This document shows positions 33,234 through 50,102 of a stretch of DNA of 64,000 nucleotides, piece after piece. The notes beneath the pieces were generated by a model. It was not told where the DNA came from. It did not search any database and saw only the letters and a list, made by a program, of their open reading frames with translations. How positions within the stretch are numbered: the stretch's first letter is position 1; the number at the start of each line of letters is the position of its first letter. The translations under genes were made by a program, and so were the position numbers. This DNA comes from Bacteroidales bacterium (GTDB taxonomy: Bacteria > Bacteroidota > Bacteroidia > Bacteroidales > WCHB1-69), in assembly GCA_017525245.1 (NCBI GenBank), contig JAFXTE010000047.1, forward strand, positions 1-64,000. The letters run 5' to 3'.

Positions 33234-33342
33234 GTGACATTGACATTCCTGCGGGGTTCTGCAGAGGAAATGGGCTATATGTGAGGGTGGCGGGCATAGG
33301 ATTTTTTGAAAGGACAAAGATACATAATCCCGTGTTGTTCGT

Positions 33343-33768
33343 TTAAAATTTTGGTTGTGTCAAATAGCGTTTTCTAAATCTCCTTTTATTCCTTTTTAGC
33401 TTATCAGGATAACTATAACCGATGTGAATACGATCTTCTTTAAGCACAATTGTTCCAAAATCAGTGGTGATATGATATCCTTCTGGAATCCTTGCTCTTC
33501 TCATTTCATATTCCTGTAGCAATATCCAATCTCTATTTCTTAAATGATAATAAATCAGACACGAATTATAATTCGCGGAATGTAGAGAATTGCACATCTC
33601 TTTCGACAAATGATATGTCAGTTGAAAAAGACCATACGTGTCAATTTGAACAATATCATTTGACGTTACGTAAATAGTATCGGCAACAGAACACACTCTA
33701 AATATCGTATCTGGAGTACTGGCATTCAGAGATATAACAATCGACAATATCTTAACAAAGTTCATCAT
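33343..33768 (-). CDS. Small exported protein, presumed immunity to L1 toxin
   Basis: 141 residues with a short hydrophobic N-terminus that may act as a signal. The middle contains ITTDFGTIVLKEDRIHIGY and the C-terminus is strongly basic (KLKRNKRRFRKR). Its start overlaps the stop of the L1 RHS gene by ATGA, the coupling expected of a toxin/immunity pair. No family recognised; the role is inferred from position. Confidence 0.6.
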   Translation of the reverse strand: MMNFVKILSIVISLNASTPDTIFRVCSVADTIYVTSNDIVQIDTYGLFQLTYHLSKEMCNSLHSANYNSCLIYYHLRNRDWILLQEYEMRRARIPEGYHITTDFGTIVLKEDRIHIGYSYPDKLKRNKRRFRKRYLTQPKF

Positions 33769-34832
33769 CTTCTTCTATTTTTCCGATTATAGTATCCTTG
33801 TCCAGCATTCCCCAATCTGTCACAATTGCCCCCATAACCATTTTCAAACAGCATCCTTTCAGTTGTGGATACTTCTGGACGTTTCACCCATCCATTTTTA
33901 GTGAAGACGTATTCTGTCCCATTCCTGTCGGTTCCCATATAGACAGCTCCATGCGATTTTTCCTCAACATTATTTCCAAATCTCAAAACGGTCTTCCCAA
34001 CCGAGGCTGATTCTTGTCCTCCTTGCAAATAACCGTTGCTCAAACAATTATCAAAGTCTTCAAGACTATTAAGATGATACCCCACTCCTTCAAAGTCATC
34101 GGGACCTGCTCCTTGTATTTTTATACATTTGCTTACGGCAATAGCAGCTCCCCAACAATTGTAGTTCTCACTATTTTCAAAATCAGGATCATTATAGGCA
34201 TCATTAATCGCATCTGTCATTATTTGGAATTCTCTCCCGTATGTTTTAGTCAGATTAATGCTGCCGTCTTGTGACATCTGTCCATATATGTTGTTTATCT
34301 CATCCTCGCTATAGGCTGACCCCATGAACTTTTTAAATGAATTGATGTCATCACCATCTTCGCGAGTTACGATGATGTTGTTGTCCTCATCCAACCCGGG
34401 AATCCATCTCCCGTCAGGATCGGTTAGTTTCACCGGGTTATTCGCGCAATAAACATACGGCGATAAAGACGGATATTTGTCACTCATCGGATCCACGCTC
34501 AGCCAGATGCTCAGGTCGGAGGAGTAATATCTTGATCCAAAGTAACTTAGTCCAGTTTCGGAGTCGCGTTCTTTGGCGGAGAAGGTGTAACAATGCATAA
34601 TGCATGATTCATAATTCATAATTGGTTGGGGGACAACGGGATGCGTGGCGGTGATTCGGAACGGCAGGCTATCCCCGTCAGGGAATGCCTCTCTGTAGCC
34701 GAGGTAGTTACGGTGCGAGGGATAAATCCCCGCGAGGGGATTCATGGGTTTCCACGGATCGCGCGAATCTGCACGTATGGGATCTGCGGGTGGCTGCTGG
34801 AGCGGCGGGCGAATAAAGTTGAGACATTTCAT
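33765..34832 (-). CDS. Orphan RHS tip L1 with NlpC/P60-like candidate toxin domain
   Basis: 355 residues: leader (1-81), RHS core (82-141, YTFSAKER to DPDG) and C-terminal domain (~145-355). The C-terminal domain has Cys226 in NYNCWGAA and His294 in SHGAVYMG, followed by YVFTKNGW, which resembles an NlpC/P60 or CHAP papain-like fold; such toxins cut peptidoglycan peptides. The match is by eye and modest. No YD-repeat body or signal peptide. Unlike other tips, no clear -7 box precedes the start. Confidence 0.72.
   Translation of the reverse strand: MKCLNFIRPPLQQPPADPIRADSRDPWKPMNPLAGIYPSHRNYLGYREAFPDGDSLPFRITATHPVVPQPIMNYESCIMHCYTFSAKERDSETGLSYFGSRYYSSDLSIWLSVDPMSDKYPSLSPYVYCANNPVKLTDPDGRWIPGLDEDNNIIVTREDGDDINSFKKFMGSAYSEDEINNIYGQMSQDGSINLTKTYGREFQIMTDAINDAYNDPDFENSENYNCWGAAIAVSKCIKIQGAGPDDFEGVGYHLNSLEDFDNCLSNGYLQGGQESASVGKTVLRFGNNVEEKSHGAVYMGTDRNGTEYVFTKNGWVKRPEVSTTERMLFENGYGGNCDRLGNAGQGYYNRKNRRR
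34594..34624. repeat. Heptamer repeat translated in the L1 leader
   Basis: Minus-strand words ATTATGA / ATCATGC / ATTATGC, read as the leader segment MNYESCIMHC just before the core. The same stretch occurs at 36191-36221, 46761-46792 and 48442-48473. Confidence 0.8.
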
Positions 34833-34867
34833 TTGCGGTTCGTAGTTTTATTCATCAAGCTGCATAT

Positions 34868-35416
34868 TCAAATTAATCCTCTGAAAAATTTCTCACAATA
34901 ATAGCCAACTTTTCTATTATCCCGTCCGATTAGAATGATATGCCATCTTGATCTCAAATGAAAAAGGAAGCAATAACATTTTCCGTTGAATGTGATTTTC
35001 ACCTCACATAATGCGTTTTTTGTTTTGTTTCTTTTAAAATTACAATATTCGTAACAATTTCTGCTATTATAGATGATTTTCGGCTGGTTGTTTGAATAAT
35101 AGACGAGGAAAAAACATTCATCCATCATCCCATTAATGTCAGCAATTTGTAAACTGTCCTCGTTATTGTAAACATGATTGTCTAACACAATCTTACCGTC
35201 AATTTTCATAGATAAAGTGTCTCCCACCTTCAATCCCGTAATTGTCAACACTGCATGTTTTTTTTTATAAGGTTTGGCAAAATCCCATATATCTTCAATG
35301 GTTCGACATTTATTTTTAAATGTGCTTGATTTTATTGGTTTTTGTCCCACTGTGGTGGTCACAAAAAACAATAAGGGTAACATGATTACAATACTTTTAC
35401 GATACAAACATTTCAT
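34868..35416 (-). CDS. Exported protein, presumed immunity to L2 metzincin
   Basis: 182 residues from the ATG at 35416, 5 bp after the L2 stop (ATGs at 35425 and 35434 overlap it). A signal peptide ends near TTTVGQ. The mature part is Cys-rich and beta-strand-like (GDTLSMKIDGKIVLDN, YNSRNCYEYCNFKRN). Its layout is similar to the protein at 45952, the partner of the related R2 metzincin (NDTFSITINGVQLYDK), which supports a shared immunity family (inference). Confidence 0.62.
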   Translation of the reverse strand: MKCLYRKSIVIMLPLLFFVTTTVGQKPIKSSTFKNKCRTIEDIWDFAKPYKKKHAVLTITGLKVGDTLSMKIDGKIVLDNHVYNNEDSLQIADINGMMDECFFLVYYSNNQPKIIYNSRNCYEYCNFKRNKTKNALCEVKITFNGKCYCFLFHLRSRWHIILIGRDNRKVGYYCEKFFRGLI

Positions 35417-35421
35417 AACAT

Positions 35422-36438
35422 TCATTTTCGGCAATGATTATGGACATTTCTTTCAAAATCGCGATACCAAATACCCTGATTGATTTTGATAGTTTTATGG
35501 TTGTCCACAGCTTCATTAATTTGATCCGAAGACACCGTTGTTCCAATACCACCTGATTGCATAAGATTTCCTTTTATATCCACATCAGGCAACCCCAACA
35601 AATGCCCAAACTCATGTGCGGCAGTTCTTTTAATATCATTGTCATTAGCTCCCTGCCCGATATCCCACTTGATATCCATTTTATTTCCATAATCTTCTGC
35701 TTCTGCGATATGATCAGCCTTGCTACATTCATCAACAATATTGATAAAATGCCTGTTGGACTCTTTCATCACATCATTGGTTTTTTCATCAATGTTACAG
35801 ATGATGTCCACATTCACATTAACAGTTGCGTCCTCATATTGTCCCGAATAAATATCTTTGATTCCAGAAGAGATGTTATCCCTCAGTCTTTCCATTTCCT
35901 TATCACTATATGTGTGGGAGGATTTGTTTATGATTTTTGCCGTAAAGTTTATTGTGATAGTCTTCTTCCCCTTTGCATCAGTTTCTGTAATTATCACTAT
36001 CTCCTCCCCATCCGGATCCACGCACCTCACCGGGTTATCCGCGCAATAAACATACGGACTCAGCGACGGATATTTCGCAGCCATCGGGTCCACGCTCAAC
36101 CATACACTCAGGTCGCTGCTGTAATAGCGTGAGCCAAAGTAACTTAGACCCGTTTCGGAGTCCTTTTCTTTGGCGGAGAAGGTGTAACAATGCATAATGC
36201 ATGATTCATAATTCATAATTGGTTGGGGAACAACGGGATGGGTGGCGGTGATTCGGAACGGCGGACTATCCCCGTCAGGAGATGAATGCCTGTAGCCGGG
36301 GTAGTTACGGTGCGAGGGATAAATCCCCGCGAGGGGATTCATGGGGCTCCGCGGATCGCACGGATCTACACGTATGATGTATGCAGAAATCTGCACGGTC
36401 TGCAGGCGGTATGGGCTATATCTTCGGCTCGGGTCCAT
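35422..36438 (-). CDS. Orphan RHS tip L2 with metzincin-like metalloprotease domain
   Basis: 338 residues: leader (1-84), core (85-145), toxin domain (~146-338). The toxin has the full metzincin zinc signature HExxHxxGxxD, seen as HEFGHLLGLPD (275-285), with a possible Met-turn at NLMQ (Met293). It is a clear paralog of the R2 domain on the other arm. A metalloprotease toxin without its own signal peptide would need another RHS body or a secretion system for export. Confidence 0.8.
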   Translation of the reverse strand: MDPSRRYSPYRLQTVQISAYIIRVDPCDPRSPMNPLAGIYPSHRNYPGYRHSSPDGDSPPFRITATHPVVPQPIMNYESCIMHCYTFSAKEKDSETGLSYFGSRYYSSDLSVWLSVDPMAAKYPSLSPYVYCADNPVRCVDPDGEEIVIITETDAKGKKTITINFTAKIINKSSHTYSDKEMERLRDNISSGIKDIYSGQYEDATVNVNVDIICNIDEKTNDVMKESNRHFINIVDECSKADHIAEAEDYGNKMDIKWDIGQGANDNDIKRTAAHEFGHLLGLPDVDIKGNLMQSGGIGTTVSSDQINEAVDNHKTIKINQGIWYRDFERNVHNHCRK

Positions 36439-36458
36439 TGGTGGTTATTATTATGGGG

Positions 36459-36466
36459 CGAAATTA
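36459..36466 (-). promoter_or_regulatory. Cassette -7-like box, L2
   Basis: TAATTTCG followed by CCCC and ending in ACCACCAATG; 20 bp to the start. One base off TAnnTTTG. The rest of the 36439-36672 gap holds no recognisable gene. Confidence 0.4.
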
Positions 36467-36672
36467 CAAAATTTTGGGATTGAATTCAAATATACACTTT
36501 GCCTTTGATGTATATGTTTCCCCTGCGGGTGCTGATATTTACCATAAATTGATATTTTGGCAAAGATGCTTCAACTGTCCGTCACAGGAAGGGATGATTA
36601 CGGTTCAGTAGAAGTTTAGACAACCAGATTTCGTTTTTTTATCTTCGTATAGAATAGATATATTGTGTTCAT

Positions 36673-37068
36673 TCAAAATTTCGCAGCTATTGCTTCTTTT
36701 TCGCAATAGTGTAGAAAATCAGCATAACGCATTGGCCCGATTTGAGTATTAGTTTTCATATCAATAACCCAAAATAAGATTTCGTTGCTTTCAGAATAAC
36801 CATAATTATATTTATTGTAGATTTCAGGAATTGGATAACAGGGAGACCATTTTATCAGGACATGCCGTTTTTCAATATAATAATCCAAAACATTTGGAGG
36901 AATTTCGTATCTTCCTTTTTTGTCCAATATATCTTTTCTTTGAGTGTTGTAATAAATGTCGTTTGTTATTTTGATACTATCAGCATCATATGTCAAAGAA
37001 ATTAGTAAAACTACGATAATCACAGAAACACCCATTGATAAAACATAAAACAGCCTGTATTTTTTCAT
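36673..37068 (-). CDS. Small membrane-anchored protein, presumed immunity to L3 toxin
   Basis: 131 residues with one N-terminal membrane segment (about 7-26, LFYVLSMGVSVIIVVLLISL) and a hydrophilic extracytoplasmic part rich in Tyr and Ile. It starts 12 bp after the stop of the L3 RHS gene. No family recognised. Confidence 0.6.
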   Translation of the reverse strand: MKKYRLFYVLSMGVSVIIVVLLISLTYDADSIKITNDIYYNTQRKDILDKKGRYEIPPNVLDYYIEKRHVLIKWSPCYPIPEIYNKYNYGYSESNEILFWVIDMKTNTQIGPMRYADFLHYCEKEAIAAKF

Positions 37069-37080
37069 AGTAGCAGATAT

Positions 37081-38034
37081 TCAGTGTGCAAAGATAGACG
37101 AGCGAAGTTGAGCTGTTCCGTAAAAATATATTGTATAAGGAGTGCCTTCTCCGGCAACATGTTGTCCTATTATTGTTTCTATGTTTCTCCCCCAGTTTGA
37201 CAGTTTCCTCCAATTTTTCATATCAAAATCATATTTATCTGCAAAAGCACGAACACCATTATTAGAAGTCCTGATAAAAGTAACATTCCCATAGACAAGT
37301 CCATCATCTGTGGGACCTGTTGATAGAAGTAAATTGAATCGATATGTTTTACCTACTTTTGAATCTCCCAGTGATCTAAAACCCGATAAGTCGATTTTTG
37401 TTAAATCTGCAAACAAGGGCGTCCCATCGCCAGTTCTATACCACTCGTTGGCTTCGTCTAATGTTATATAACCATCATAATCAGGTCTGTCTTTTAGTGA
37501 TTTATAATGATCCCAGTATCGAATCTCAGCAGCAAAACTTTGAGAAGGATCAAAACATGTTGATTTCGACATAGCTTCTGTATGGCTCATATTTTGGCGG
37601 AAATCTTTTTTATCCATAATAATTGCATCACCTTGTAATCCTAAATCATCGGTGCAAAGAAAATAACCAAATCTATCATAGATGGGATTAACTTCCTCCC
37701 CATTCGGATCCACGCACCTCACCGGGTTATCCGCGCAATAAACATACGGACTCAGCGACGGATATTTCGAAGCCATCGGGTCCACGCTCAGCCATACACT
37801 CAAATCGGAGGAGTAATATCTTGAGCCAAAGTAGCTTAGGCCGGTTTCGGAGTCGCGTTCTTTGGCGGAGAACGTGTAAGTCGAGTTAGCAGTTAGCAGT
37901 GAGTAGTGAGCAGTTAGAGGTGGTGCCATCTGCGCCCCGCAAACAGGGCATCTTCGCGTGTCGCGTGTGGCTGCACAGATGGCCTCGGTGAGGATTTGCG
38001 AGGGTTGTGGACGATATGGTTGACCGTGGTTCAT
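37081..38034 (-). CDS. Orphan RHS tip L3 with uncharacterised C-terminal domain
   Basis: 317 residues from the ATG at 38034 (MNHGQPYRP), chosen by the shared promoter and leader pattern; an ATG at 38082 is upstream of the box. The leader is followed by heptamer-encoded residues and the core. The C-terminal domain begins NPIYDRFGYFLCTDDLG, then GYITLDEANEWYRTGDG and ends with an Ile/Tyr-rich segment. From memory, similar DDLGLQGDAI domains recur at the ends of Bacteroidota RHS proteins, but I know no function. No zinc motif seen. Confidence 0.7.
   Translation of the reverse strand: MNHGQPYRPQPSQILTEAICAATRDTRRCPVCGAQMAPPLTAHYSLLTANSTYTFSAKERDSETGLSYFGSRYYSSDLSVWLSVDPMASKYPSLSPYVYCADNPVRCVDPNGEEVNPIYDRFGYFLCTDDLGLQGDAIIMDKKDFRQNMSHTEAMSKSTCFDPSQSFAAEIRYWDHYKSLKDRPDYDGYITLDEANEWYRTGDGTPLFADLTKIDLSGFRSLGDSKVGKTYRFNLLLSTGPTDDGLVYGNVTFIRTSNNGVRAFADKYDFDMKNWRKLSNWGRNIETIIGQHVAGEGTPYTIYFYGTAQLRSSIFAH
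37884..37918. repeat. Heptamer repeat in the L3 leader (AGTTAGC)
   Basis: Five 7-base units (AGTTAGC, AGTTAGC, AGTGAGT, AGTGAGC, AGTTAGA), translated on the minus strand immediately before the core. Confidence 0.85.
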
Positions 38035-38051
38035 TGATGTTTTTGACGGGG

Positions 38052-38059
38052 CGAAGGTA
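38052..38059 (-). promoter_or_regulatory. Cassette -7-like box, L3
   Basis: TACCTTCG followed by CCCCGTCAAAAA; 17 bp before the ATG at 38034. Confidence 0.45.
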
Positions 38060-38099
38060 CGAAAAAAGTGAAAAAAAATCAAAACAAAAAAATCATATT

Positions 38100-38606
38100 C
38101 TATGGTCTGCGTATTAATTCAAGAATAATTGATTGCTTCAGAATGCAACAATCCTGCTTACTTATACGATTTGCAGGGTCTGCTAAATCTATATGGTCAA
38201 ATACAGGATTTTCTATGCCATTTGGAATAATATCGTTGATAAATGAAAAATCGCACAAAGTATCACTTGTCATCAAAAATTGTTTTAGTTTCTTCGCTTG
38301 AAGAGTTGTCCATGCAAGTCTTTTTTCAAAGCTAGTAGGCTCAAAATCGTATAGGTAAATATTACACGTATACATAGGATACAACTTCATGAATTGACAC
38401 ATCTCTGTAAAAAATCGCATTGTCTCTGCATTAAAGCGACCTTCAACAGAGCACGGGATTTTGCTCAGGACAATCTTTGTAGTGTCACGAAGGGTGTCTA
38501 TATGATAGGGGTATCCTATGTAATATTGAGCTTGTACTCGCCCCACAGAAAACAAACAGAGTATTCCAAACAAAAAAACAATCTTGTTAATGAATTTATT
38601 TTGCAT
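38100..38606 (-). CDS. Exported protein, presumed immunity to L4 toxin
   Basis: 168 residues with a signal peptide (cleavage near GRVQA|QYY). The middle (EKRLAWTTLQAKKLKQFLM) faintly recalls the helix of OmpA-like domains but the peptidoglycan-binding residues are not evident. The ATG overlaps the L4 stop by 11 bp. Role inferred from position. Confidence 0.6.
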   Translation of the reverse strand: MQNKFINKIVFLFGILCLFSVGRVQAQYYIGYPYHIDTLRDTTKIVLSKIPCSVEGRFNAETMRFFTEMCQFMKLYPMYTCNIYLYDFEPTSFEKRLAWTTLQAKKLKQFLMTSDTLCDFSFINDIIPNGIENPVFDHIDLADPANRISKQDCCILKQSIILELIRRP

Positions 38607-39645
38607 ATTGAATGGCTGTTTTATGAAAATTATTAATACTAGAGGTTATCGTCGGAGGAATAAAAGACGCATACCCATCAGCACTAATTGAGTATCCCCA
38701 TTTAATCGAAACAACACGAGAATTATCAGATGAGTTCACCACTGATGAGGTGAAGTGCATACCTATTTCTTTTCCAGAACCCACAAACCGCCTATTCCCG
38801 TCACTCAGGGTTGTTGTTTTCTGATATGGATTGAAAAAACATGAAATGGTAGGATCTGTACTTTGGGCCCCACAATCCACATAATCAGAATAACTATCTG
38901 TTATTCTGTCAAAAGCAAATTCACCATTTGAATCCGTAAAAAAATTCGTGGAATATGTTTGTACCCAATTATAAGATTTTTTTGAATCAGTCGGAATAAA
39001 TTCAATATTGATTTCTGCCATAGCCGATTCATTATCCCCCAAATATCGATTCCCACCATATGTGTTATAGGAAACATTTCCCAAACTTCCGGATCCATCT
39101 GGTAAATCATATTTTGCCCCTACGTATCTGTAACCGTCAGGTGTATTTTCTTGGCAAGTAACATCTTGCATCCATATCACCTCACCTGATGTTAAGTTCT
39201 CTACCCAATCTATCTCCTCCCCATTCGGGTCCACCACCTTCACCGGGTTATTCGCGCAATAAACATACGGCGATAAAGACGGATATTTGTCACTCATCGG
39301 GTCCACGCTCAGCCAGATGCTCAGGTCGCTGCTGTAATAGCGTGAGCCAAAGTAAGATAGGCCGGTTTCGGAGTCCTTTTCTTTGGCGGAGAACGTGTAA
39401 GTCCAGTGAACAGTGAGCAGTGAACAGTGAACAGAGAGATGGGGGAGGTCGGAAGGGTTCCCCGTGATTCCGAACAGCAGGTTATCCCCGTTAGGAGATG
39501 AATATCTGTAGCCGAGGGCGTTACGATGAAGATTCTGAATCCCCAGATGGGGATTCATCGGTCTTCGCGGATTGCGAGTGTCTTCGCGAAGAATGTCATC
39601 GGACATTCGTGAGACCAGCAGGCGATTTGGTTGGTGCCTAATCAT
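38596..39645 (-). CDS. Orphan RHS tip L4 with uncharacterised C-terminal domain
   Basis: 349 residues: leader (1-82), core (83-143) and a ~205-residue C-terminal domain rich in Ser, Tyr and Asn (for example TYGGNRYLGDNESAMAE, DYVDCGAQSTDPTISC). It looks beta-rich and carries no HExxH, Cys-His or nuclease-like motif I can recognise. Start supported by the box at 39663. Confidence 0.7.
   Translation of the reverse strand: MIRHQPNRLLVSRMSDDILREDTRNPRRPMNPHLGIQNLHRNALGYRYSSPNGDNLLFGITGNPSDLPHLSVHCSLLTVHWTYTFSAKEKDSETGLSYFGSRYYSSDLSIWLSVDPMSDKYPSLSPYVYCANNPVKVVDPNGEEIDWVENLTSGEVIWMQDVTCQENTPDGYRYVGAKYDLPDGSGSLGNVSYNTYGGNRYLGDNESAMAEINIEFIPTDSKKSYNWVQTYSTNFFTDSNGEFAFDRITDSYSDYVDCGAQSTDPTISCFFNPYQKTTTLSDGNRRFVGSGKEIGMHFTSSVVNSSDNSRVVSIKWGYSISADGYASFIPPTITSSINNFHKTAIQYAK
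39404..39438. repeat. Heptamer repeat in the L4 leader (CAGTGAA)
   Basis: Five 7-base units (CAGTGAA, CAGTGAG, CAGTGAA, CAGTGAA, CAGAGAG) just before the core; translated on the minus strand as SLLTVHW-like residues. Confidence 0.85.
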
Positions 39646-39662
39646 CGGTGGGTTTTGTTGGG

Positions 39663-39670
39663 CAAAAGTA
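39663..39670 (-). promoter_or_regulatory. Cassette -7 box, L4
   Basis: A perfect TACTTTTG, followed by CCC, 17 bp before the ATG at 39645. Confidence 0.5.
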
Positions 39671-39739
39671 CACTTTTTTGATTAACAAGTGCTTGAACAG
39701 TGTGGAATTCTATCGTTTATCTGATTAAAGTTTGCAATG

Positions 39740-40342
39740 TCACCTTCGTTTATTACCCCGAAAAATAATTTTAGGTTTCCTATAATGAATGATATTGTTT
39801 TGTGATAGGTGACGCAAGCACCTTAATTCGCATTTTGGGATACTTCCTTGGGGGTCGGTGGGTATATTCGGATGAAAAATATAATATTGCCTGATATTGC
39901 ATAATGTTGAATTGTCAACATTTTTAAAGTTGTTCAACACCCAACGAACAACGTCTTCAACATTGTGTCTTTTTTTGCAACAATTAAGTCCTATAAAGGC
40001 GAATATGCTATCATTGTACGGGATAATAATCATTGAAACTTTTCCATATACGTTAGGAGAGACCACATGATATAAATGACTGTTTATAAGATATAATGTG
40101 TCGTTTTCAGACACCAACTTATTGTTATTATCCACAAGATCATACATATAAAACAATCCATGCTTAATCCCTGTTCGATACCATCTGTTTAATTTCTCAA
40201 ATTCCTTACCGATGCATTTCTGATAGGGATCCTTGTCTCCATAAAATGTTATTTTTGACAGAGTGTCCTGTGCTGAACAAATATGTTGCAAGAAAAAGGC
40301 TGTCAACAAGAAGAAAACATATTTATTAATCTTACCTTGCAT
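39740..40342 (-). CDS. Exported protein, presumed immunity to L5 toxin
   Basis: 200 residues from the ATG at 40342, where a signal peptide begins (FFLLTAFFLQHICSAQ). It overlaps the end of the L5 RHS gene by 11 bp. The mature part contains YRTGIKHGLFYMYDLVDNN and a basic C-terminus. No family recognised. Confidence 0.6.
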   Translation of the reverse strand: MQGKINKYVFFLLTAFFLQHICSAQDTLSKITFYGDKDPYQKCIGKEFEKLNRWYRTGIKHGLFYMYDLVDNNNKLVSENDTLYLINSHLYHVVSPNVYGKVSMIIIPYNDSIFAFIGLNCCKKRHNVEDVVRWVLNNFKNVDNSTLCNIRQYYIFHPNIPTDPQGSIPKCELRCLRHLSQNNIIHYRKPKIIFRGNKRR

Positions 40343-42641: not shown

Positions 42642-42654
42642 GTTGCCAGCATCG

Positions 42655-43365
42655 TCATAGTCTAAGCATAAGCATCTCTTTTGGACGAATCAAATATCTG
42701 AAACACAAGCGGATCATGGCAACATATCCGCTCATCTCCCGCTTGTGGAAATAGTTGAGGATTCTTTTTCGGTCTTGCTTGGGGATGGTGACCCTGCGTT
42801 TGGTCTCCCGCTTTTTTCCTTTGAATGTGGCAAACGGGTTGTGCGCTGCAAGTCCGTCAGCGACAAACGACCGGAACAGGCTCTTCAGAAACTGGAGCAT
42901 GCTGTTGTAGGAGTAGGTGCTCCGTCCGCCTGCGCCATATTCGTCAAGGAGACTCGCGGCATGTGCATTGGTGAAACGCCCGCAGAGCCAGTCGGAAATG
43001 CCGACCTTCTCGCACCATCTGGTGAAGAATGACAGTTTCGACCGGTAGCTGCGCACGCTATCCTTTCGGAGGTCTTTGACCTTCCGGCGAACATGGTCGG
43101 TGGCTGCTTCCACAATAGAGACTCTTTTCTTGGATATGGAATCCTCTCCCATCAGCGGGTTCCACCCATTGTAGAGTTTCCGGTTGATTTCGCCACAGAG
43201 CAGTGTAGCGTATTTTGTCCGCTCACGCGGGTTTTTGATACGGTTGCAGCGTATGCGCATGCGTTTGAGTTTGTCGTTAGTCGGGTCAAGGACGTAGTAA
43301 CAGACATAGACTTCCTTGTCTCCCATGATTTGTGCGGGTCTGAAATCGACGAATGGAGTTGCCAT
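42655..43365 (-). pseudogene. Tyrosine recombinase (phage-type integrase), C-terminally truncated
   Basis: 236 residues remain. An N-terminal arm-binding-like part (1-~85), a SAM-like core-binding domain (~95-190; SFFTRWCEKVGISDWL, YSYNSMLQFLKSLFRSFV) and the very start of the catalytic domain ending RPKEMLMLRL. The first catalytic Arg is present but the HxxR and Tyr motifs are gone, so it cannot recombine. It ends exactly where RHS YD-repeat sequence begins. The longest ORF expected of this family is roughly 380-420 residues. Confidence 0.8.
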
Positions 43366-43492
43366 AACAAATTAACAATGAAATTAAAAATATTGTATAT
43401 ATAAAATTAGTGTTATATTTCCCGAAAAAGTCGTGATTTCATGGTTTATGGCACGTTTCTGGCGCAGTTCAATTAACAGAAAGTCTTAATAT

Positions 43493-43575
43493 CAAAGATA
43501 TTTCAAACGATTGTTGAAAAACCCGATGGCGCAAAGATAACCTTTTTACGCATTACGAAAAAAATGTTACCTTTG
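43493..43575. promoter_or_regulatory. Divergent promoter hub of the RHS array
   Basis: Two minus-strand TATCTTTG boxes (43493-43500 and 43532-43539) face the recombinase remnant and left arm; a plus-strand TACCTTTG (43568-43575) faces R1, 19 bp before its ATG. The 43366-43594 gap is otherwise AT-rich and holds no gene. Confidence 0.5.
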
Positions 43576-43594
43576 CACCGTCAAACAATCGGGT

Positions 43595-44353
43595 ATGAAC
43601 CAGCATATTACATATTCAACAACACCCCTGCCCACTTTCTTTGCGGACATTTACACCTTCTCCGCCAAAGAAAAGGACTCCGAAACCGGCTTATCCTACT
43701 TCGGCTCAAGGTATTACAGCAGCGACCTGAGTGTATGGTTGAGCGTGGACCCGATGGCTGCGAAATATCCGTTGCTGAGTCCGTATGTTTATTGCGCGGA
43801 TAACCCGGTGAGGTTGGTGGATCCGGATGGGGAGGAGATAGTTGAAGACAAACCACCTGGAAAAATATCGAACTTCTTGACTAATCTCGATCGGAAAGTT
43901 GTTGGAACTTCTGAAAACAGACAATTTGAAGGTGGCAGCGATGGTGCAAACCAAGGCACAATGACGAAACAAGATGTGGAGGCTGGTGTTTCTGTTATTT
44001 CAACGATAGTGTCCACTGGTACCGCCTTGGAGGCAAGGGGTGCATTTGAAACAACTGTAGCTATAGTTTCTGCAGCAAATAGTATTGATGACGCAACGGT
44101 TAACACTTCAGGCCAATCAGGATTGCAAAGGGCTACCGCTAACAGCAAAGGGGCAAGTAACACTGTCACTTTTGTGAAAACAGCATCTTCCGTGACATCA
44201 GTTGGGGTTTCTTGTCGTAATGTAAAAAACATTGTTGTAAAAGGAACGGGGGAAATCAAAAAAAACGCAAACAAGATTATTAACAATGTTGTTAGTGCTG
44301 CCTCCAGTGCATATAGTGCATTCTCATCTTTATTTAAAAAGAAAAAATCATAA
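43595..44353 (+). CDS. Orphan RHS tip R1 with hydrophobic, possibly pore-forming domain
   Basis: 252 residues: a very short leader (1-19) without the proline-rich part, core (20-81) and a C-terminal domain rich in Gly, Ala, Ser and Val. Two mildly hydrophobic stretches (GVSVISTIVSTGTALEA; FETTVAIVSAANSIDD) and a basic tail (FKKKKS). The composition and the membrane nature of the partner protein suggest membrane insertion, but this is a guess. Confidence 0.7.
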   Translation: MNQHITYSTTPLPTFFADIYTFSAKEKDSETGLSYFGSRYYSSDLSVWLSVDPMAAKYPLLSPYVYCADNPVRLVDPDGEEIVEDKPPGKISNFLTNLDRKVVGTSENRQFEGGSDGANQGTMTKQDVEAGVSVISTIVSTGTALEARGAFETTVAIVSAANSIDDATVNTSGQSGLQRATANSKGASNTVTFVKTASSVTSVGVSCRNVKNIVVKGTGEIKKNANKIINNVVSAASSAYSAFSSLFKKKKS

Positions 44354-44354
44354 A

Positions 44355-44807
44355 ATGTTAAACAAAAGAAAACCTCTTTTGCGAATAGCTTCTTGGTATG
44401 TGTTGTTTCTTCCTATCACATCTTCGACTCTTTTGTTATATAGCGGAGGTGATTGGAAATGGTGGATTGTGATTGTCAGTCAATTTATTTTGTTTTATCC
44501 TCTTATCTGTTTCGTTTTTCAATTTGTGTTTTTCTATGAGGATTGTATGGTTATTATCCGTCCATTAAATCCATTTCGCATGAAGAGGATCATAACATAT
44601 AACCAAATTGACCATATTAAGGATGTATTCCAAGGTCGCACAACAGCTGTAATGTCACCTTATGATTTGTTGGTGTATATACATGGCAAAAGACAACCCG
44701 TCGGGATTCCCATGCCATCATCATCAAAAAAACAAGAATCTCTAAAGATATTGATTGAATCAAAGGGAGTGCGTGCTGAATGGGGTATTTATGGAAATCA
44801 TTTTTGA
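44355..44807 (+). CDS. Membrane protein with PH-like domain, presumed immunity to R1
   Basis: 150 residues from the ATG at 44355, one base after the R1 stop. Two membrane segments (about 9-30 and 36-57) precede a soluble part (FRMKRIITYNQIDHIKDVF ...) that looks like a small bacterial PH domain. A membrane immunity protein would suit a membrane-acting toxin. Family call is tentative. Confidence 0.6.
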   Translation: MLNKRKPLLRIASWYVLFLPITSSTLLLYSGGDWKWWIVIVSQFILFYPLICFVFQFVFFYEDCMVIIRPLNPFRMKRIITYNQIDHIKDVFQGRTTAVMSPYDLLVYIHGKRQPVGIPMPSSSKKQESLKILIESKGVRAEWGIYGNHF

Positions 44808-44878
44808 AATATACTAATCTACATTTTCGGACAGCAAATCATCCAAAAATATCGTTCTTTCACGCTATCAAAAAGCCT

Positions 44879-45955
44879 ATGCCCGCCACCTACACATATA
44901 ACCCGCCACCTCTGCAAAACCCCGCAGGAATACTACGCGCAGATCAGTGCGATCCGCGGAGATACCTGGCCGCGCCATCCACCGCGCCCTGCCCGGTTCA
45001 GCCCCTGAAGGGGCTCCGGAGGACCCGCGCCGCCGTTTCCTACCGAGTTTTTGCCCCTGTCGGGGCAAACCTGCCATTTACAATTGAGGGTAACCCTTCC
45101 GTCTCTCCCACAATTGTACATTGTTCATTGTACATTGTACATTGTCCGAGTTACACCTTCTCCGCCAAAGAAAAGGACTCCGAAACCGGCCTAAGCTACT
45201 TTGGCTCAAGATATTACTCTTCCGATTTGAGCATTTGGTTGAGCGTGGACCCGCAGGCTTCGAAATATCCGTCGCTTTCGCCGTACGTTTACTGCGCGAA
45301 TAATCCGGTGAGGGTGGTGGATCCGGATGGGGAGGAGATTGTGATAACGGAAACGACCGATAACAATGGGAATAAGGTGATTAATATTCATTTCACGGCT
45401 GCGTTGGTTAATAAATCCTCCAGATTCATTTCTTCTGAAAAGATGGAATTATATAAATCCAGTATTGAAACATCTTTGAAAAATCATTACGGTGGTTCAT
45501 ACGACGATGGAACAACAGTGAATGTTTCTGTTGATTTACAAATATATGATAAAGATGACCTTTCTTATTGTTTGACAGATCGTCACAACATTTTCATAAA
45601 GGATCATTGCTCGGATTATACTAAAGCAGGCATGGCGGAAGAAGGAGGTCGAGATATGGAACTAAGTTTGGCAGTGTGCGACAACATTAACGACCAACGT
45701 GTTTCAAATATGTCCAACACTTTTGAAAGAACAGTGGCGCACGAATTCGGGCATTTCTTGAATTTGGCTCATGATAAGGCTGATAATAATTTGATGAATG
45801 AGAAAACAGAAGGAACCGTAATTACAACTGGGCAAAACAACACTGCTTTGAGCAATTTTCGAAGCAACAAAATGAATCAGGGGAATGGTTTCTTTTATTA
45901 CCAACAACGAATGAGACGCAGAAATTCTTTAGGTACACCACCCCATAAATCATGA
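44879..45955 (+). CDS. Orphan RHS tip R2 with metzincin-like metalloprotease domain
   Basis: 358 residues from the ATG at 44879 (MPATYTYNPPP), preferred over 44780 because it begins the proline-rich leader. Leader (1-91), core (92-153), toxin domain (~154-358). Zinc motif HEFGHFLNLAH (288-298) fits HExxHxxNxxH, with Met306 as a possible Met-turn. Homologous to L2 over its length (shared VNKSS, TVNVSVDL, AHEFGH). The gene overlaps its partner by ATGA. Confidence 0.78.
   Translation: MPATYTYNPPPLQNPAGILRADQCDPRRYLAAPSTAPCPVQPLKGLRRTRAAVSYRVFAPVGANLPFTIEGNPSVSPTIVHCSLYIVHCPSYTFSAKEKDSETGLSYFGSRYYSSDLSIWLSVDPQASKYPSLSPYVYCANNPVRVVDPDGEEIVITETTDNNGNKVINIHFTAALVNKSSRFISSEKMELYKSSIETSLKNHYGGSYDDGTTVNVSVDLQIYDKDDLSYCLTDRHNIFIKDHCSDYTKAGMAEEGGRDMELSLAVCDNINDQRVSNMSNTFERTVAHEFGHFLNLAHDKADNNLMNEKTEGTVITTGQNNTALSNFRSNKMNQGNGFFYYQQRMRRRNSLGTPPHKS
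45113..45147. repeat. Heptamer repeat in the R2 leader (ATTGTAC)
   Basis: Five 7-base units (ATTGTAC, ATTGTTC, ATTGTAC, ATTGTAC, ATTGTCC), translated as HCSLYIVHC just before the core. Confidence 0.88.
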
Positions 45956-46497
45956 ATTTTATGTTAAAACAAAGAGGGATAGTCTTACCCTTGATTGCTT
46001 TCTTCGCTTTTTGTTTCTTATATGGTTGTAACACGTATAAGAACACATTACCTAATTCGTTTTATGCGGTGATGGATAACCCCAAATTTGCGGATGGTGA
46101 GATCATGTTGTTCCGTTTTTATATATGCGAAAACGACACGTTTTCTATAACAATAAATGGGGTACAGTTGTACGACAAATACACTCCCTCAAATTTTTCG
46201 GAATGTACATACTTGGATGACCACACAACAGATGGGTACGCTTCGTATAATTATGATTTTGTGATATACCAGTGTTCTCAAAAACGTGCCGTTATGTATT
46301 TGTTGAATAACCAGAGTATTTCATTCTCGATTCCTTTACGAAATCAATCAATAGATATCTCTGGAAGTTACTCACCTGGTAATTTCAACTTTTCTGTTCC
46401 TATGGGGAATTGTAAACAGTTTATTGTCCACCATTTTCATAATGATACTACAGTTGTCAGAAAAGAATCTCTTCAGGGCATTCGATTTTACGAATAG
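45952..46497 (+). CDS. Lipoprotein, presumed immunity to R2 metzincin
   Basis: 181 residues, overlapping R2 by ATGA; an ATG at 45961 is an alternative. Lipobox FLYGC at ~24. The mature part is beta-strand-like (ENDTFSITINGVQLYDK, SISFSIPLRNQSIDISGSY). Same general plan as the L2 partner at 34868. Role inferred. Confidence 0.65.
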   Translation: MNFMLKQRGIVLPLIAFFAFCFLYGCNTYKNTLPNSFYAVMDNPKFADGEIMLFRFYICENDTFSITINGVQLYDKYTPSNFSECTYLDDHTTDGYASYNYDFVIYQCSQKRAVMYLLNNQSISFSIPLRNQSIDISGSYSPGNFNFSVPMGNCKQFIVHHFHNDTTVVRKESLQGIRFYE

Positions 46498-46521
46498 AAA
46501 AACTAATTGTCGCTATTTATG

Positions 46522-46529
46522 TACTTATT
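46522..46529 (+). promoter_or_regulatory. Cassette -7-like box, R3
   Basis: TACTTATT, then ACCCCATCACCAATG; 12 bp to the start. It keeps the flanks of the other cassette boxes but has drifted in the TTTG part. Confidence 0.35.
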
Positions 46530-46541
46530 ACCCCATCACCA

Positions 46542-47570
46542 ATGAACCACCCCCAACCATATCCCCCGCCGCTTTCGCCGATTCCCGAAGACCCTCTCCT
46601 CGGGAATCCTTGTGATTCGCGCGATCCGCGGAGCCCCATGAATCCCCTCGCGGGGATTCGGGCTACGCATCGGACCACCTACGGCTACAGAGAGGCATTC
46701 CCTGACGGGGATAGTCCGCCGTTCCGAATCACTGCCACGCATCCCGTTGTCCCCCAACCAATTATGAATTATGAATCATGCATTATGCATTGTTACACCT
46801 TCTCCGCCAAAGAACGCGACTCCGAAACCGGCCTAAGCTACTTTGGCTCAAGATATTACTCCTCCGATTTGAGTGTATGGCTGAGCGTGGACCCGATGAG
46901 TGACAAATATCCTTCGCTGAGCCCGTATGTTTATTGCGCGGACAACCCGGTGAAGTTGGTGGATCCGAACGGGGAGGAGATTGTTATTTTCGTAAACAAG
47001 ACGAAATATACCTACAATGGTAAAGATTTCGTTGACGGAAACGGTAATGTTGCCAATTTCAACAAAAATTCCTTCGAATACCGTGTCCTTTCAGATCTGA
47101 ACAAACTGTATAATTCCAAAAGTGGCATGATACGGAGTAAATTAACTGATATGATGAAAAGCAAGCACCAGCATTCAATTGTTAACAGGACAACATCCGA
47201 TGGTGTCGGTTTTAATCATGCTTTAAAGCCAACTCTTGCAGAAAAATATGGGGAGGGATCCGACACAGAAACAGGATACAACCCTTTTGCCACTGAAAGT
47301 GCATGTGCAGATGGAGGATATGTATCATGTGCCACTTTAGCACACGAATTGTTGGGGCATGGTTGGAACAACGACCAAGGACTCCACGAGGCTGATGACC
47401 ATAGAACCGAAAACGGTATTAGGTTCGAAGAAATAAACGCTATAAATGTCCAAAACAAGGTTTTGGTCGAACATCATCAAAAACCACGCTCTTTAGTCGG
47501 TAAGCCAGGTGAGGCTAAACAAATCCCTGTACATCTGATAAACCATTATTATACAACTAAACCTAAATAA
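46542..47570 (+). CDS. Orphan RHS tip R3 with HELLGH metallopeptidase-like domain
   Basis: 342 residues: leader (1-84, MNHPQPYPPPLSP), core (85-145), toxin domain (~146-342). A CATLAHELLGHGWN motif (His268, Glu269, His273) is followed by acidic RFEEINAINVQNK. It is one residue longer than HExxH between the two His, so either an unusual zinc site or a relative of M91 (NleD-like) peptidases, whose HExxH and downstream Glu-Glu...Asn pattern it recalls. Starts with CACCAATG context. Confidence 0.7.
   Translation: MNHPQPYPPPLSPIPEDPLLGNPCDSRDPRSPMNPLAGIRATHRTTYGYREAFPDGDSPPFRITATHPVVPQPIMNYESCIMHCYTFSAKERDSETGLSYFGSRYYSSDLSVWLSVDPMSDKYPSLSPYVYCADNPVKLVDPNGEEIVIFVNKTKYTYNGKDFVDGNGNVANFNKNSFEYRVLSDLNKLYNSKSGMIRSKLTDMMKSKHQHSIVNRTTSDGVGFNHALKPTLAEKYGEGSDTETGYNPFATESACADGGYVSCATLAHELLGHGWNNDQGLHEADDHRTENGIRFEEINAINVQNKVLVEHHQKPRSLVGKPGEAKQIPVHLINHYYTTKPK
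46761..46792. repeat. Heptamer repeat in the R3 leader (ATTATGA)
   Basis: Units ATTATGA, ATTATGA, ATCATGC, ATTATGC before the core; the same sequence occurs in L1, L2, R4 and, with a different end, R5. Confidence 0.85.
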
Positions 47571-47579
47571 ACAATTGTC

Positions 47580-48155
47580 ATGAATAATAAAAACATATAT
47601 TTCACCACATTATTCATTGTTGTCTTGACCGTCGTAGGTGTCTTTCCTTCGGATGCCCAGTCCATTCTTGGACGGGATATTTCTTTTCGAAAATACGTTA
47701 GATTAAATAACCGTCGCAGTCGTGAAGAAGTTATTCGTGAAGCGGTAAAGTCTTATGCTTTTCTATATCTTACCATCAAAGACGGTGACTTTCAAGGAAA
47801 AGTCATGATGTCAAACGATGCTCTTATCAATTATTATCACAAGTGGATGCCTGACAGTCTGCTTCAAGATAATCCTTCATACGAAGATTGGGCAACCAAT
47901 ATCATCCTTAATGAAGTACCTCTTGATGTAACAGGATTTTATCGAGAATATCACAAAGTGGACAGTCTTGTCAACTGGAAAGGTCCTAAATACAAATTAC
48001 TGGAAAAATGCATTGAATTATGCGACAAAGACATTATCGATTACAATATTTTAGCCACTTTGTTCCAATGGAACATTGTGTTAGATAATGTTGACGAAGA
48101 GTTGCATCTCTATTTCTTTCCCTTGGAATTCAGACAATATGGGAGAGAGCCTTGA
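47580..48155 (+). CDS. Exported protein, presumed immunity to R3
   Basis: 191 residues with a signal peptide (cleavage near FPSDAQ|SIL), 9 bp after R3. Helix-rich mature part (REEVIREAVKSYAFLYLTI; KYKLLEKCIELCDKDII). No family recognised. Confidence 0.6.
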   Translation: MNNKNIYFTTLFIVVLTVVGVFPSDAQSILGRDISFRKYVRLNNRRSREEVIREAVKSYAFLYLTIKDGDFQGKVMMSNDALINYYHKWMPDSLLQDNPSYEDWATNIILNEVPLDVTGFYREYHKVDSLVNWKGPKYKLLEKCIELCDKDIIDYNILATLFQWNIVLDNVDEELHLYFFPLEFRQYGREP

Positions 48156-48194
48156 AAGATGCCTTGTGTAGATATGATCACTTTCTAAATCTCG

Positions 48195-48202
48195 TATCTT
48201 CA
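48195..48202 (+). promoter_or_regulatory. Cassette -7-like box, R4
   Basis: TATCTTCA followed by CCTCGTCAAAAAA and CACCAATG; 20 bp to the start. Confidence 0.4.
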
Positions 48203-48222
48203 CCTCGTCAAAAAAATCACCA

Positions 48223-49263
48223 ATGAACCACCCCCAACAATATCCCCTGCCGCTTTCGCCGATTCCCGCAGACTCTCTCCGCGGAGATCCGTGTGATTCG
48301 CGCGATCCGCGGAAACCCATGAATCCCCTCACGGGGATTTGGTCTACGCATCGGACCACCCTCGGCTACAGAGAGGCATCCCCTGACGGGGATAGCCTGC
48401 CGTTCCGAATCACCGCCACGCATCCCGTTGTCCCCCAACCAATTATGAATTATGAATCATGCATTATGCATTGTTACACCTTCTCCGCCAAAGAAAAGGA
48501 CTCCGAAACCGGCTTATCCTACTTCGGCTCAAGGTATTACAGCAGCGACCTGAGTGTATGGTTGAGCGTGGACCCGATGGCGGCGAAATATCCTTCGCTT
48601 TCGCCTTACGTTTATTGCGCGGACAATCCGGTGAGGGTGGTGGATCCGGATGGGGAGGAGATAGGGGAATATAGAGATTGGAACGGTAATTTATTGGGGA
48701 CTGATGGAAAAGATGATCTTAATGTTTTTTTTGTTTCAGATGAGAAAAGTGTCAATACTATAAGAAATAACAACGTTTCAGGTAAAACAACTAATCGTTC
48801 CGATGTAAAAATTGATTGGGAGACAAATAAAATAGTGACACATACAATCGTATCCGTGTATGATATGACTGTGAACAATGGTGGGGATCGTGAAGAAGCT
48901 GCTTCTTTTCCAAGAGAATGCGGGCTGCCTAAATTTTATCCAACAGGGAGCGATGATGGAGAAATTGAAATAGATTCTAAAGGATATTTGTCCATACACT
49001 CCCATAAACTGAATTATTTCGATTGTCCTGATGGTACCGAAACCTGTGTACAGACGCCATTCGATTTATCCGATAAAGACAAAGCCGTTTTCCCAAATTA
49101 TAAATATAACGTTGTTGTCGGGAACAGTTATCAATCGGTGACTAATTTCAGTACGGGAACGGTCTATGAAAAGAGATTGGGAACCGCCGTGATTTACGAT
49201 TCGGGAAAGAATAAAGTTGGGGAAATAAGTATAAATAATTTGAGAAAAATCAAATATTTCTAG
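48223..49263 (+). CDS. Orphan RHS tip R4 with JAB/MPN-like candidate domain
   Basis: 346 residues: leader (1-84), core (85-145), C-terminal domain (~146-346). YLSIHSHKLNYF (His259, His261) and PFDLSDKD (Ser283, Asp286), with upstream Glu225-226, resemble the JAMM metal site (E...HxH...SxxD), although the gap between HxH and Ser is longer than usual. Such domains occur in polymorphic toxins. The match is tentative. Confidence 0.68.
   Translation: MNHPQQYPLPLSPIPADSLRGDPCDSRDPRKPMNPLTGIWSTHRTTLGYREASPDGDSLPFRITATHPVVPQPIMNYESCIMHCYTFSAKEKDSETGLSYFGSRYYSSDLSVWLSVDPMAAKYPSLSPYVYCADNPVRVVDPDGEEIGEYRDWNGNLLGTDGKDDLNVFFVSDEKSVNTIRNNNVSGKTTNRSDVKIDWETNKIVTHTIVSVYDMTVNNGGDREEAASFPRECGLPKFYPTGSDDGEIEIDSKGYLSIHSHKLNYFDCPDGTETCVQTPFDLSDKDKAVFPNYKYNVVVGNSYQSVTNFSTGTVYEKRLGTAVIYDSGKNKVGEISINNLRKIKYF
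48442..48473. repeat. Heptamer repeat in the R4 leader (ATTATGA)
   Basis: Same four units as in R3, immediately before the core. Confidence 0.85.
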
Positions 49264-49271
49264 TTTTTGAC

Positions 49272-49796
49272 ATGAAAAAGTTAAGTTTGTTTGTTTTTGT
49301 GGTTATGTTTGCCAATATGGTTTTGGCACAGAAGATAGTTCCCGCAATATTTGTCGTTGATGGAATGCTTCCTGAATCTATAGGTTTCACGTGTGTTACT
49401 AGTTCTGGCGATACACTGTCTTTCTCCTATTTCAGAAGTCATTTTCAAATAGAAAGTCTAACCTATCAGAAGTTGCGAAACCTCCCTGATACGGCAGCTA
49501 TAAATATCACAATGATTTACACCGAATGGTATGAAGGACCACCCCACAAGAAGACGTATGAATTTAAATGTGATATGTGGAAAGAAGTTCTATTGAGTGG
49601 GAACGTTCTCATAAGTGTTACCACATTTGACAGTGAGAAAACCATTTACTATGTTGATTATTCAGGAGGCCTTTGGGTGAAGAAATATGAATATGATAAA
49701 CGTTTCGGCAACCGCAAGAAGGCATTCCAAAGAGTTCATGCCATATATCCAAAACGTTATACGAGTAAGAAAAATGTAATTATCTATAGCCGATGA
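49272..49796 (+). CDS. Exported protein, presumed immunity to R4
   Basis: 174 residues with a signal peptide (cleavage near MVLAQ|KIV), 8 bp after the R4 stop. Beta-rich mature part (SFSYFRSHFQIESLTYQ; TTFDSEKTIYYVDYSGG) and a basic C-terminus. No family recognised. Confidence 0.6.
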   Translation: MKKLSLFVFVVMFANMVLAQKIVPAIFVVDGMLPESIGFTCVTSSGDTLSFSYFRSHFQIESLTYQKLRNLPDTAAINITMIYTEWYEGPPHKKTYEFKCDMWKEVLLSGNVLISVTTFDSEKTIYYVDYSGGLWVKKYEYDKRFGNRKKAFQRVHAIYPKRYTSKKNVIIYSR

Positions 49797-49831
49797 AAAG
49801 TAAAGCGCTATACTATTTGTCGTTATTTTTG

Positions 49832-50102
49832 TACTTATTGCCCCCTCAAATATTCACCAATGGTCCGTCGCCAACCATATTCCCTGCCGCTTTCGCCGAT
49901 TCCCGCAGACCCTCTCCGCGGAGATCCGTGTGATCCGCGGAGACCCATGAATCCCCTCACTGGGATTCGGGCTACGCATCGGACCACCCTCGGCTACAGA
50001 GAGGCATCCCCTGACGGGGATAGTCCGCCGTTCCGAATCACCGCCACGCATCCCGTTGTCCCCCAACCAATTATGAATTATGAATCATGAATTATGAATT
50101 AC
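49832..50102 (+). pseudogene. Empty RHS cassette R5: promoter and leader without core or toxin
   Basis: A -7-like TACTTATT (49832-49839), CACCAATG context and a leader of 76 codons from 49860 nearly identical to those of R3 and R4 (LSPIPADPLRGD ... ITATHPVVPQP), ending MNYES and then a stop in the ATTATGA heptamers, where the others continue into the core. The heptamer run (50070-50102) then joins the 3' end of coaE. Either a deletion product or an unfilled precursor. Confidence 0.75.

What the first reader, a model, noticed from the sequence alone, without database searches (positions are those of the whole stretch)
33343..50102. Outward-facing array of nine RHS toxin/immunity pairs around a truncated recombinase
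Five RHS genes with partners are on the minus strand left of about 43.4 kb and four on the plus strand to its right. All share the same core and differ after it. Orphan RHS tips next to a full gene are known; a two-armed array with opposite orientations and independent promoter-like boxes is, to my knowledge, not described for this phylum.
Basis: partly seen in the sequence, partly recalled or inferred. Interest (0 to 1): 0.85.

Follow-up and report, generated by a model that had tools for sequence, protein, structure and literature searches.

The report
Two-armed bank of toxin tips
A gut Bacteroidales genome keeps nine spare toxin-tip and partner-gene pairs in two rows that point away from each other around the wreck of a gene-shuffling enzyme, a layout that recurs in relatives and could help show how bacteria collect and swap weapons.

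Summary
Nine RHS-core tips (five minus, four plus), each with a partner gene, lie between an S46 peptidase gene and coaE. Misassembly is unlikely: G020 has the same two-armed locus, G009 has the two arms on separate contigs, G013 and G025 have the empty site. In the genus, of 138 neighbouring core pairs 130 are co-directional, 8 divergent, 0 convergent.

The recombinase is the remnant of an RHS-linked integrase: 13 of 14 same-genus copies or remnants with readable upstream sequence lie 277-348 bp from, and divergent to, an RHS core. Intact loci continue with a gene with a weak T9SS-tail match and a ~3,050-aa RHS carrier. The cassette facing the integrase has a constant 21-codon leader with a TAnnTTTG box (18 of 18; other short leaders 6 of 67). 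Here a deletion fused integrase and carrier.

Tips are exchanged through a ~186-bp core. Orphan tips lack hydrophobic N-termini while partner proteins usually have them, so most tips look silent. Breakpoints at both core edges favour homologous recombination; an integron-like reaction is not excluded. The carrier was matched in only 13 of 35 core-bearing drafts. New variant of the known Rhs orphan-tip array.

The parts
30980..33139 (+). S46 peptidase gene, left flank of the insertion
   Evidence: ORF; Pfam Peptidase_S46; adjacent to coaE with no array in G013 and G025
33245..33306 (-). coreless leader remnant closing the minus arm
   Evidence: 85% match to the leader of cassette G
33343..33768 (-). 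partner (putative immunity) gene A
   Evidence: ORF; no Pfam match at E 0.1
33765..34832 (-). orphan RHS tip A (outermost minus arm; conserved in G020)
   Evidence: TIGR03696; CT 99% identical to G020
34868..35434 (-). partner gene B
   Evidence: ORF
35422..36438 (-). orphan RHS tip B, metzincin-like metallopeptidase C-terminus (Pfam M10, below cut-off)
36673..37068 (-). partner gene C
   Evidence: ORF
37081..38082 (-). orphan RHS tip C; core-to-core block 36000-37888 is 95% identical in G009 but on the opposite arm
38100..38606 (-). partner gene D
   Evidence: ORF
38596..39645 (-). orphan RHS tip D, TAnnTTTG box upstream
39740..40396 (-). partner gene E
   Evidence: ORF
40332..42641 (-). N-truncated remnant (769 aa) of a full-length RHS gene
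   Evidence: aligns from about residue 2246-2304 of 3026-3105-aa relatives
42655..43365 (-). tyrosine recombinase remnant (residues 1-236 of 374), running straight into RHS homology
43366..43594 (.). central intergenic region between integrase and MNQ cassette; TGGCGCA at 43460 and 43527, TAnnTTTG box at 43568
   Evidence: 72% DNA identity to G027 and G036
43595..44353 (+). innermost plus cassette F: 21-codon MNQ leader + core + tip
44286..44807 (+). partner gene F
   Evidence: ORF
44780..45955 (+). orphan RHS tip G, metzincin-like (Reprolysin/M10/M43 hits below cut-off)
45952..46497 (+). partner gene G, lipoprotein-like N-terminus (read by eye)
   Evidence: ORF
46542..47570 (+). orphan RHS tip H, M91-like (just below cut-off)
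47580..48155 (+). partner gene H
   Evidence: ORF
48223..49263 (+). orphan RHS tip I (outermost plus arm; conserved in G020; CT family also on a full-length gene in G039)
49272..49796 (+). partner gene I
   Evidence: ORF
49854..50100 (+). coreless leader remnant closing the plus arm, ending in an ATTATG-type repeat at the coaE 3' end
50088..50648 (-). coaE, right flank; its 3' end is the insertion junction
   Evidence: Pfam CoaE

Best explanation
This is a two-armed reservoir of orphan RHS toxin tips and their partner genes, built and reshuffled mainly by homologous recombination through a shared ~186-bp core. It grew around a bidirectional founder module. One side was an RHS-linked tyrosine integrase, a gene with a weak T9SS-tail match and a full-length RHS carrier with a hydrophobic, signal-peptide-like start. 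The other was a promoter-equipped slot with a constant-length 21-codon leader followed by a core and a tip. Core-to-core exchange adds, removes and swaps [tip + partner] units on either side. In this genome a deletion fused the integrase to the end of the carrier gene, leaving tips and partner genes. Shown: anatomy, recurrence, core-edge breakpoints, tip families shared by orphan, slot and full-length contexts, one block on opposite arms in two species, and the fusion. Inferred: that recombination is RecA-type, that tips act in the cell envelope, that most orphans are silent, and what the integrase does.
For: Neighbouring core orientations: 66 ++, 64 --, 8 -+, 0 +- among 251 cores from 35 genomes (count rechecked; 32 of 283 matches left out beforehand as weak, one of them from G000). 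G020 shares both ends and the centre of the locus, with the interior replaced. Empty site in G013 and G025. Block 36000-37888 runs core to core and lies on opposite arms in G000 and G009. 95 C-termini fall in 41 families (17 singletons); some families hold orphan, slot and full-length members. Integrase: 13 of 14 same-genus copies or remnants with readable upstream have a divergent core at 277-348 bp; in the named collection 7 of 7 intact close copies with upstream sequence do, and 0 of the 13 other loci. MNQ leaders have TAnnTTTG in 18 of 18, other short leaders in 6 of 67. Integrase residue 236 runs into RHS residue ~2,240-2,298 at the same place. Hydrophobic N-terminus with one method for all: partner ORFs 75 of 82, orphan toxins 3 of 79, carriers 5 of 5, other window ORFs 18 of 35. 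pN/pS 0.24 for cores, 0.72 for leaders. Core identity in six two-armed loci 0.79 within arms, 0.78 across arms; 0.735 between loci.
Against: The carrier's N-terminal half was matched in only 13 of the 35 core-bearing genomes (drafts, query from one species), and not in this one, so for many arrays there is no known carrier to draw on the reservoir. In-frame reading of leaders is kept open (median 58 codons against 20 and 28.5) and 65 of 81 have an in-frame ATG, so orphans may be translated. The hydropathy test is crude. G009's outermost tips differ from those of G000. The arm change of block C could be horizontal transfer. Divergent cases are not independent (three in G004; G000 and G020 orthologous) and G019 C80 looks like an artefact. 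Many clusters are cut by contig ends. No strain-level data, no experiment.
Confidence: 0.65

Rival explanations
1. Integron-like platform: the RHS-linked integrase captures circular core-tip-partner cassettes at a site at the leader/core junction behind the divergent slot promoter, and older cassettes are pushed outward.
For: Divergent integrase/slot geometry with narrow spacing. Constant 21-codon leader with promoter box in 18 of 18. Near-identical leaders step to unlike cores within the first 30 bp in 9 of 12 pairs, six of them among four G004 copies. In one of six same-tip pairs (tip I, G000/G020) the whole core travels with the tip and the step is at the leader edge. An imperfect 12-7-12 inverted repeat is centred on the junction, mean 8.22 of 12 in 18 MNQ leaders against 4.15 in 68 other short leaders. 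Seven intact integrases, pN/pS 0.22-0.44.
Against: In four of six same-tip pairs the step is at the other (tip) edge of the core, slight in a fifth, as gene conversion confined to the core would give. Three of 12 leader pairs stay alike into the core. Most of the inverted repeat follows from the conserved peptide: synonymous resampling mean 7.61, 5 of 1000 reach 8.22 (one leader per group: 8.10, 12 of 1000), after offsets had been scanned. No attC-like site was found, though only one motif was tried. Arrays at G004 C3, C12, C42 and G017 C58 have no integrase match. The recombinase box II reads YSLKD rather than the usual HxxR (by eye; motif recalled), so activity is not assured.
Confidence: 0.17
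2. Shufflon-like: inverted cores on the two arms let inversion across the centre swap tips reversibly without losing any.
For: Such inversions preserve the divergent layout, and convergence was not seen. Block C sits on opposite arms in two species. Cores are as alike across arms as within arms.
Against: Only one arm change seen, explainable by transfer. Centre orientation relative to the flanks is the same in G000 and G020. No read or strain data.
Confidence: 0.1
3. Ordinary orphan-tip arrays that happen to lie head to head; the recombinase is a bystander from an unrelated mobile element.
For: Single-direction clusters are the majority (54 of 62 multi-core clusters, many cut by contig ends).
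Against: Eight divergent against zero convergent; the same integrase subfamily beside a divergent RHS core in 13 of 14 same-genus cases and 7 of 7 named loci.
Confidence: 0.06

Closest known systems
Rhs orphan-tip arrays of Enterobacteriaceae, C-terminal displacement (Jackson 2009, PMC2935791; passages read)
   Same: Conserved core, displaced tips kept in arrays, homologous recombination through the core, tips decoupled from cores
   Different: [quoted passage not shown] here two arms and an RHS-linked integrase. The find call counted no 'inver' or 'bacteroid' in the text
Salmonella main-rhs/orphan fusion (Koskiniemi 2014, PMC3967940; abstract and outline read)
   Same: Orphan tip without export signal, linked to an immunity gene, activated by recombination with the main gene
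   Different: There the orphan lacks a translation start; here most leaders have an in-frame ATG, and no main gene was found in this draft
Rhs loci with nearby integrases in Snodgrassella and Gilliamella (Steele 2017, PMC5727410; passages read)
   Same: Integrase genes noted near Rhs genes, a role in capture suggested
   Different: The passages read mention no divergent slot, two arms or constant leader; T6SS-linked
Polymorphic toxin and polyimmunity loci (Zhang 2012, PMC3482391; passages read)
   Same: Arrays of toxin cassettes with adjacent immunity genes; XerC/D-like recombinases beside some polyimmunity loci
   Different: Here cassettes keep both tip and partner and lie in two outward arms
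Integrons (recalled; compared with Rhs or effector arrays in PMC2935791 and PMC5361080, passages read)
   Same: Tyrosine integrase divergent from a promoter and an array of cassettes
   Different: No attC-like site found (one motif tried); exchange tracts fit core homology

Membership tests
Rhs/RHS polymorphic toxin orphan-tip array | Rhs-associated core domain in each member | tested here: met
   TIGR03696 above cut-off in nine of nine
Rhs/RHS polymorphic toxin orphan-tip array | Variable C-terminus with a downstream partner gene | tested here: met
   Nine of nine in the window; 82 of 91 surveyed cassettes have a downstream ORF
Rhs/RHS polymorphic toxin orphan-tip array | Full-length carrier gene in the genome | tested here: not met
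   Only a 769-aa remnant here; carrier N-terminal half not found in this draft; found in 14 of 40 same-genus genomes, three of them weakly or at contig ends
Rhs/RHS polymorphic toxin orphan-tip array | Toxin activity and specific immunity | not testable with these tools
   Domain hits only, at E 0.001: JAB1, M91, M10, TseH, YkuD, Tlde1 and others among 91 C-termini
Integron | Tyrosine integrase divergent from the array | tested here: met
Integron | IntI-specific domain / IntI homology | not tested
   Pfam gives generic Phage_integrase; no IntI comparison made
Integron | attI/attC recombination sites | tested here: inconclusive
   Junction inverted repeat mostly explained by the peptide; only one motif scanned elsewhere
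Shufflon / invertible array | Alternative orientations in one population | not testable with these tools
   One assembly per species; one arm change between species
Tyrosine recombinase | Catalytic domain with conserved residues | tested here: inconclusive
   PF00589 at 1.1e-22 for the intact G018 relative; R227 and Y357 invariant in six intact copies, but box II has K where HxxR is usual (by eye, recalled motif); the window's remnant lacks all beyond the first R

The most novel reading that the evidence does not exclude
Probability: 0.17. Interest if true: 0.9.

Novelty: new variant of a known kind. Interest (0 to 1): 0.6.

Why it matters
[quoted passage not shown] integrases near Rhs genes were later noted in bee gut bacteria (PMC5727410, passage). 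Here an integrase subfamily sits beside RHS cores at a narrow distance, next to a constant promoter-leader slot, so the idea becomes directly testable. The two-armed geometry also gives inverted cores, which could allow tip exchange without loss. Some gut Bacteroidales would carry large tip and partner-gene libraries, and this locus shows what is left when the carrier decays.

Tried and rejected
Site-specific exchange as the main route: the step at the leader/core junction (9 of 12 pairs) looked like it, but in four of six same-tip pairs the step is at the opposite core edge, so homologous exchange within the core is favoured; one pair (tip I) goes the other way. The junction inverted repeat: most of it follows from the peptide; offsets and spacings were scanned first, so its p value is optimistic. 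Horizontal jump of the centre between G017 and G028: identity 93.8% equals their coaE-region identity 93.6%, so it looks inherited, although the flanks differ. Leaders as ordinary protein domains: pN/pS 0.72 over 31 non-independent pairs, and part of their DNA belongs to dispersed repeats. Cross-arm versus within-arm core identity: no clear difference. My first hydropathy comparison gave partner ORFs more start codons than toxins; rerun with one method for all. Structure prediction of tips I and A: tool switched off. Literature: ten searches (listings seen) showed no paper on a two-armed RHS array in Bacteroidales; the library is open-access only.
Full report
What is there. The window (G000:C43:1-64000 of a 111-contig draft) holds nine ORFs with the RHS-associated core, five on the minus strand and four on the plus strand, each followed by a partner ORF. 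I call them A to E (minus, outer to inner) and F to I (plus, inner to outer). E is a 769-aa ORF that aligns from about residue 2246-2304 of 3026-3105-aa full-length relatives. The recombinase next to it stops at residue 236 of 374, and RHS homology (residue ~2,240-2,298) begins at the same place. So integrase and carrier were once in line on one strand, as in relatives, and a deletion joined them. Leaders without a core lie at both outer ends. The flanks are an S46 peptidase and CoaE.

Misassembly is unlikely. G020 has the same two-armed locus between the same genes. Three blocks are shared: the left flank through tip A (95.5%), the centre from the integrase to the slot core (89.9%) and tip I through the right flank (91.5%), with the interior replaced. 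G009 has an S46-side and a coaE-side arm on two contigs. G013 and G025 have coaE and S46 adjacent with no array. In G013 the junction carries a short ATTCATAATT stretch that resembles the leader's end repeat, so it could also be a scar of loss.

Recurrence. A 63-aa core query matched 70 of 100 genomes, own included. From I kept 251 of 283 matches (32 weak ones left out) in 35 of the 40 genomes of the genus; 62 clusters (gaps under 5 kb) have two or more cores. Neighbouring pairs: 66 ++, 64 --, 8 divergent, 0 convergent. One divergent pair (G019, 181 bp) looks like an artefact. G004 gives three, and G000 and G020 are orthologous, so these are not independent events. G018, G027 and G032 are also divergent, with centres longer than the 5-kb limit.

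The centre. An integrase search in the 40 genomes found seven full-length copies at 60-100% identity to G018's. Six have a divergent core upstream; for G037 the contig ends there. Remnants in G000, G020, G027, G031, G035, G036 and G004 C14 (the last at 50% identity) also have one; a C-terminal fragment in G039 C29 does not. That is 13 of 14 with readable upstream, at 277-348 bp. In the named collection, seven of seven intact close copies with upstream sequence (L047-L051, L053, L054) have the core; the other 13 loci (12 at 46% identity or less and one 72% fragment of 74 residues) have none in the fetched flanks, and L052 ends at its contig edge. On the integrase's other side come, where readable, a gene with a Por_Secre_tail match below the cut-off in five of five tested, and an RHS gene; the two carriers tested have SpvB, TcdB_midN, FG-GAP and RHS domains.

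The slot. Eighteen cassettes have a 21-codon leader of the MNQ type, and 18 of 18 have TAnnTTTG upstream, against 6 of 67 other short-leader cassettes (the class was defined by leader length of about 21 codons and by its first residues). That TAnnTTTG is the Bacteroidetes -7 box is recalled. Reading the maps by eye, 17 of the 18 are innermost.

Exchange. Core identity falls sharply at both edges of about 186 bp. 95 C-termini fall into 41 families, 17 of them singletons; some families mix orphan, slot and full-length contexts. In 9 of 12 pairs with near-identical leaders the cores differ from the start. In four of six pairs with the same tip the cores differ up to the tip edge; a fifth shows a slight step and in the sixth (tip I) the core goes with the tip. 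So the core is the usual exchange tract. Block 36000-37888 runs core to core and lies on the S46 arm in G000 but the coaE arm in G009. Outermost tips A and I are kept in G020 but not in G009.

Function. With one method for all, a hydrophobic N-terminus is seen in 75 of 82 partner ORFs, 3 of 79 orphan toxins, 5 of 5 carriers and 18 of 35 other window ORFs; at a stricter threshold 60, 0, 5 and 13. This is hydropathy, not a signal-peptide predictor. Domain hits at E 0.001 among 91 C-termini are JAB1 (6), M91 (5), M10 (3), and single TseH, YkuD, Tlde1 and others. I infer envelope targets. Leaders evolve almost free of protein constraint (pooled pN/pS 0.72, core 0.24, 31 non-independent pairs) yet stay open in frame, so some translation is likely. 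The carrier's N-terminal half was not found in this draft; the same query matched 14 of 40 genomes, three of them weakly or at contig ends, 13 of these among the 35 with cores. Whether and how arrays without a carrier are used is unknown.

Verdict. A known kind of system (Rhs orphan tips exchanged through the core) in a new two-armed form tied to an RHS-linked integrase and a promoter-leader slot. What the integrase does is open.

Noticed in passing
window 46535-50100 leaders and G000:C70:8039-10061 (L011): The central part of the REP-like leaders matches dispersed, partly inverted-pair repeats on C70, and the ATTATGAATTATG-type stretch matches at 28 further listed places (only 40 of 83 candidates were scored).
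   Followed up: partly
L031 and L032 (G017:C5, G028:C2): The same centre, diverged at the species rate, sits beside different flanks in two close species, suggesting relocation or rearrangement through cores.
   Followed up: partly
L031 1-2410 and L015 8253-10662: G017 and G018 share this flank at 97% although their coaE regions are 86% and their centres 83% identical; not explained.
   Followed up: no
L020 2580-3653, L036 1567-2727, L034 2783-3922: LytTR-domain regulators (two of three also with winged-helix hits) lie divergent to the carrier operon.
   Followed up: partly
L013 7486-9366: An ORF that begins like the ORF6N-type gene at the contig edge (label by eye) and continues into RHS sequence.
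   Followed up: no
window 43460 and 43527, and relatives: Conserved TGGCGCA motifs between integrase and slot; in several relatives two copies lie 11 bp apart. An ATTGTATATAT stretch is also conserved. Possible binding sites.
   Followed up: partly
coaE 3' end, window 50088-50110: The last residues of CoaE differ between occupied and empty sites, so the insertion junction touches its 3' end.
   Followed up: no
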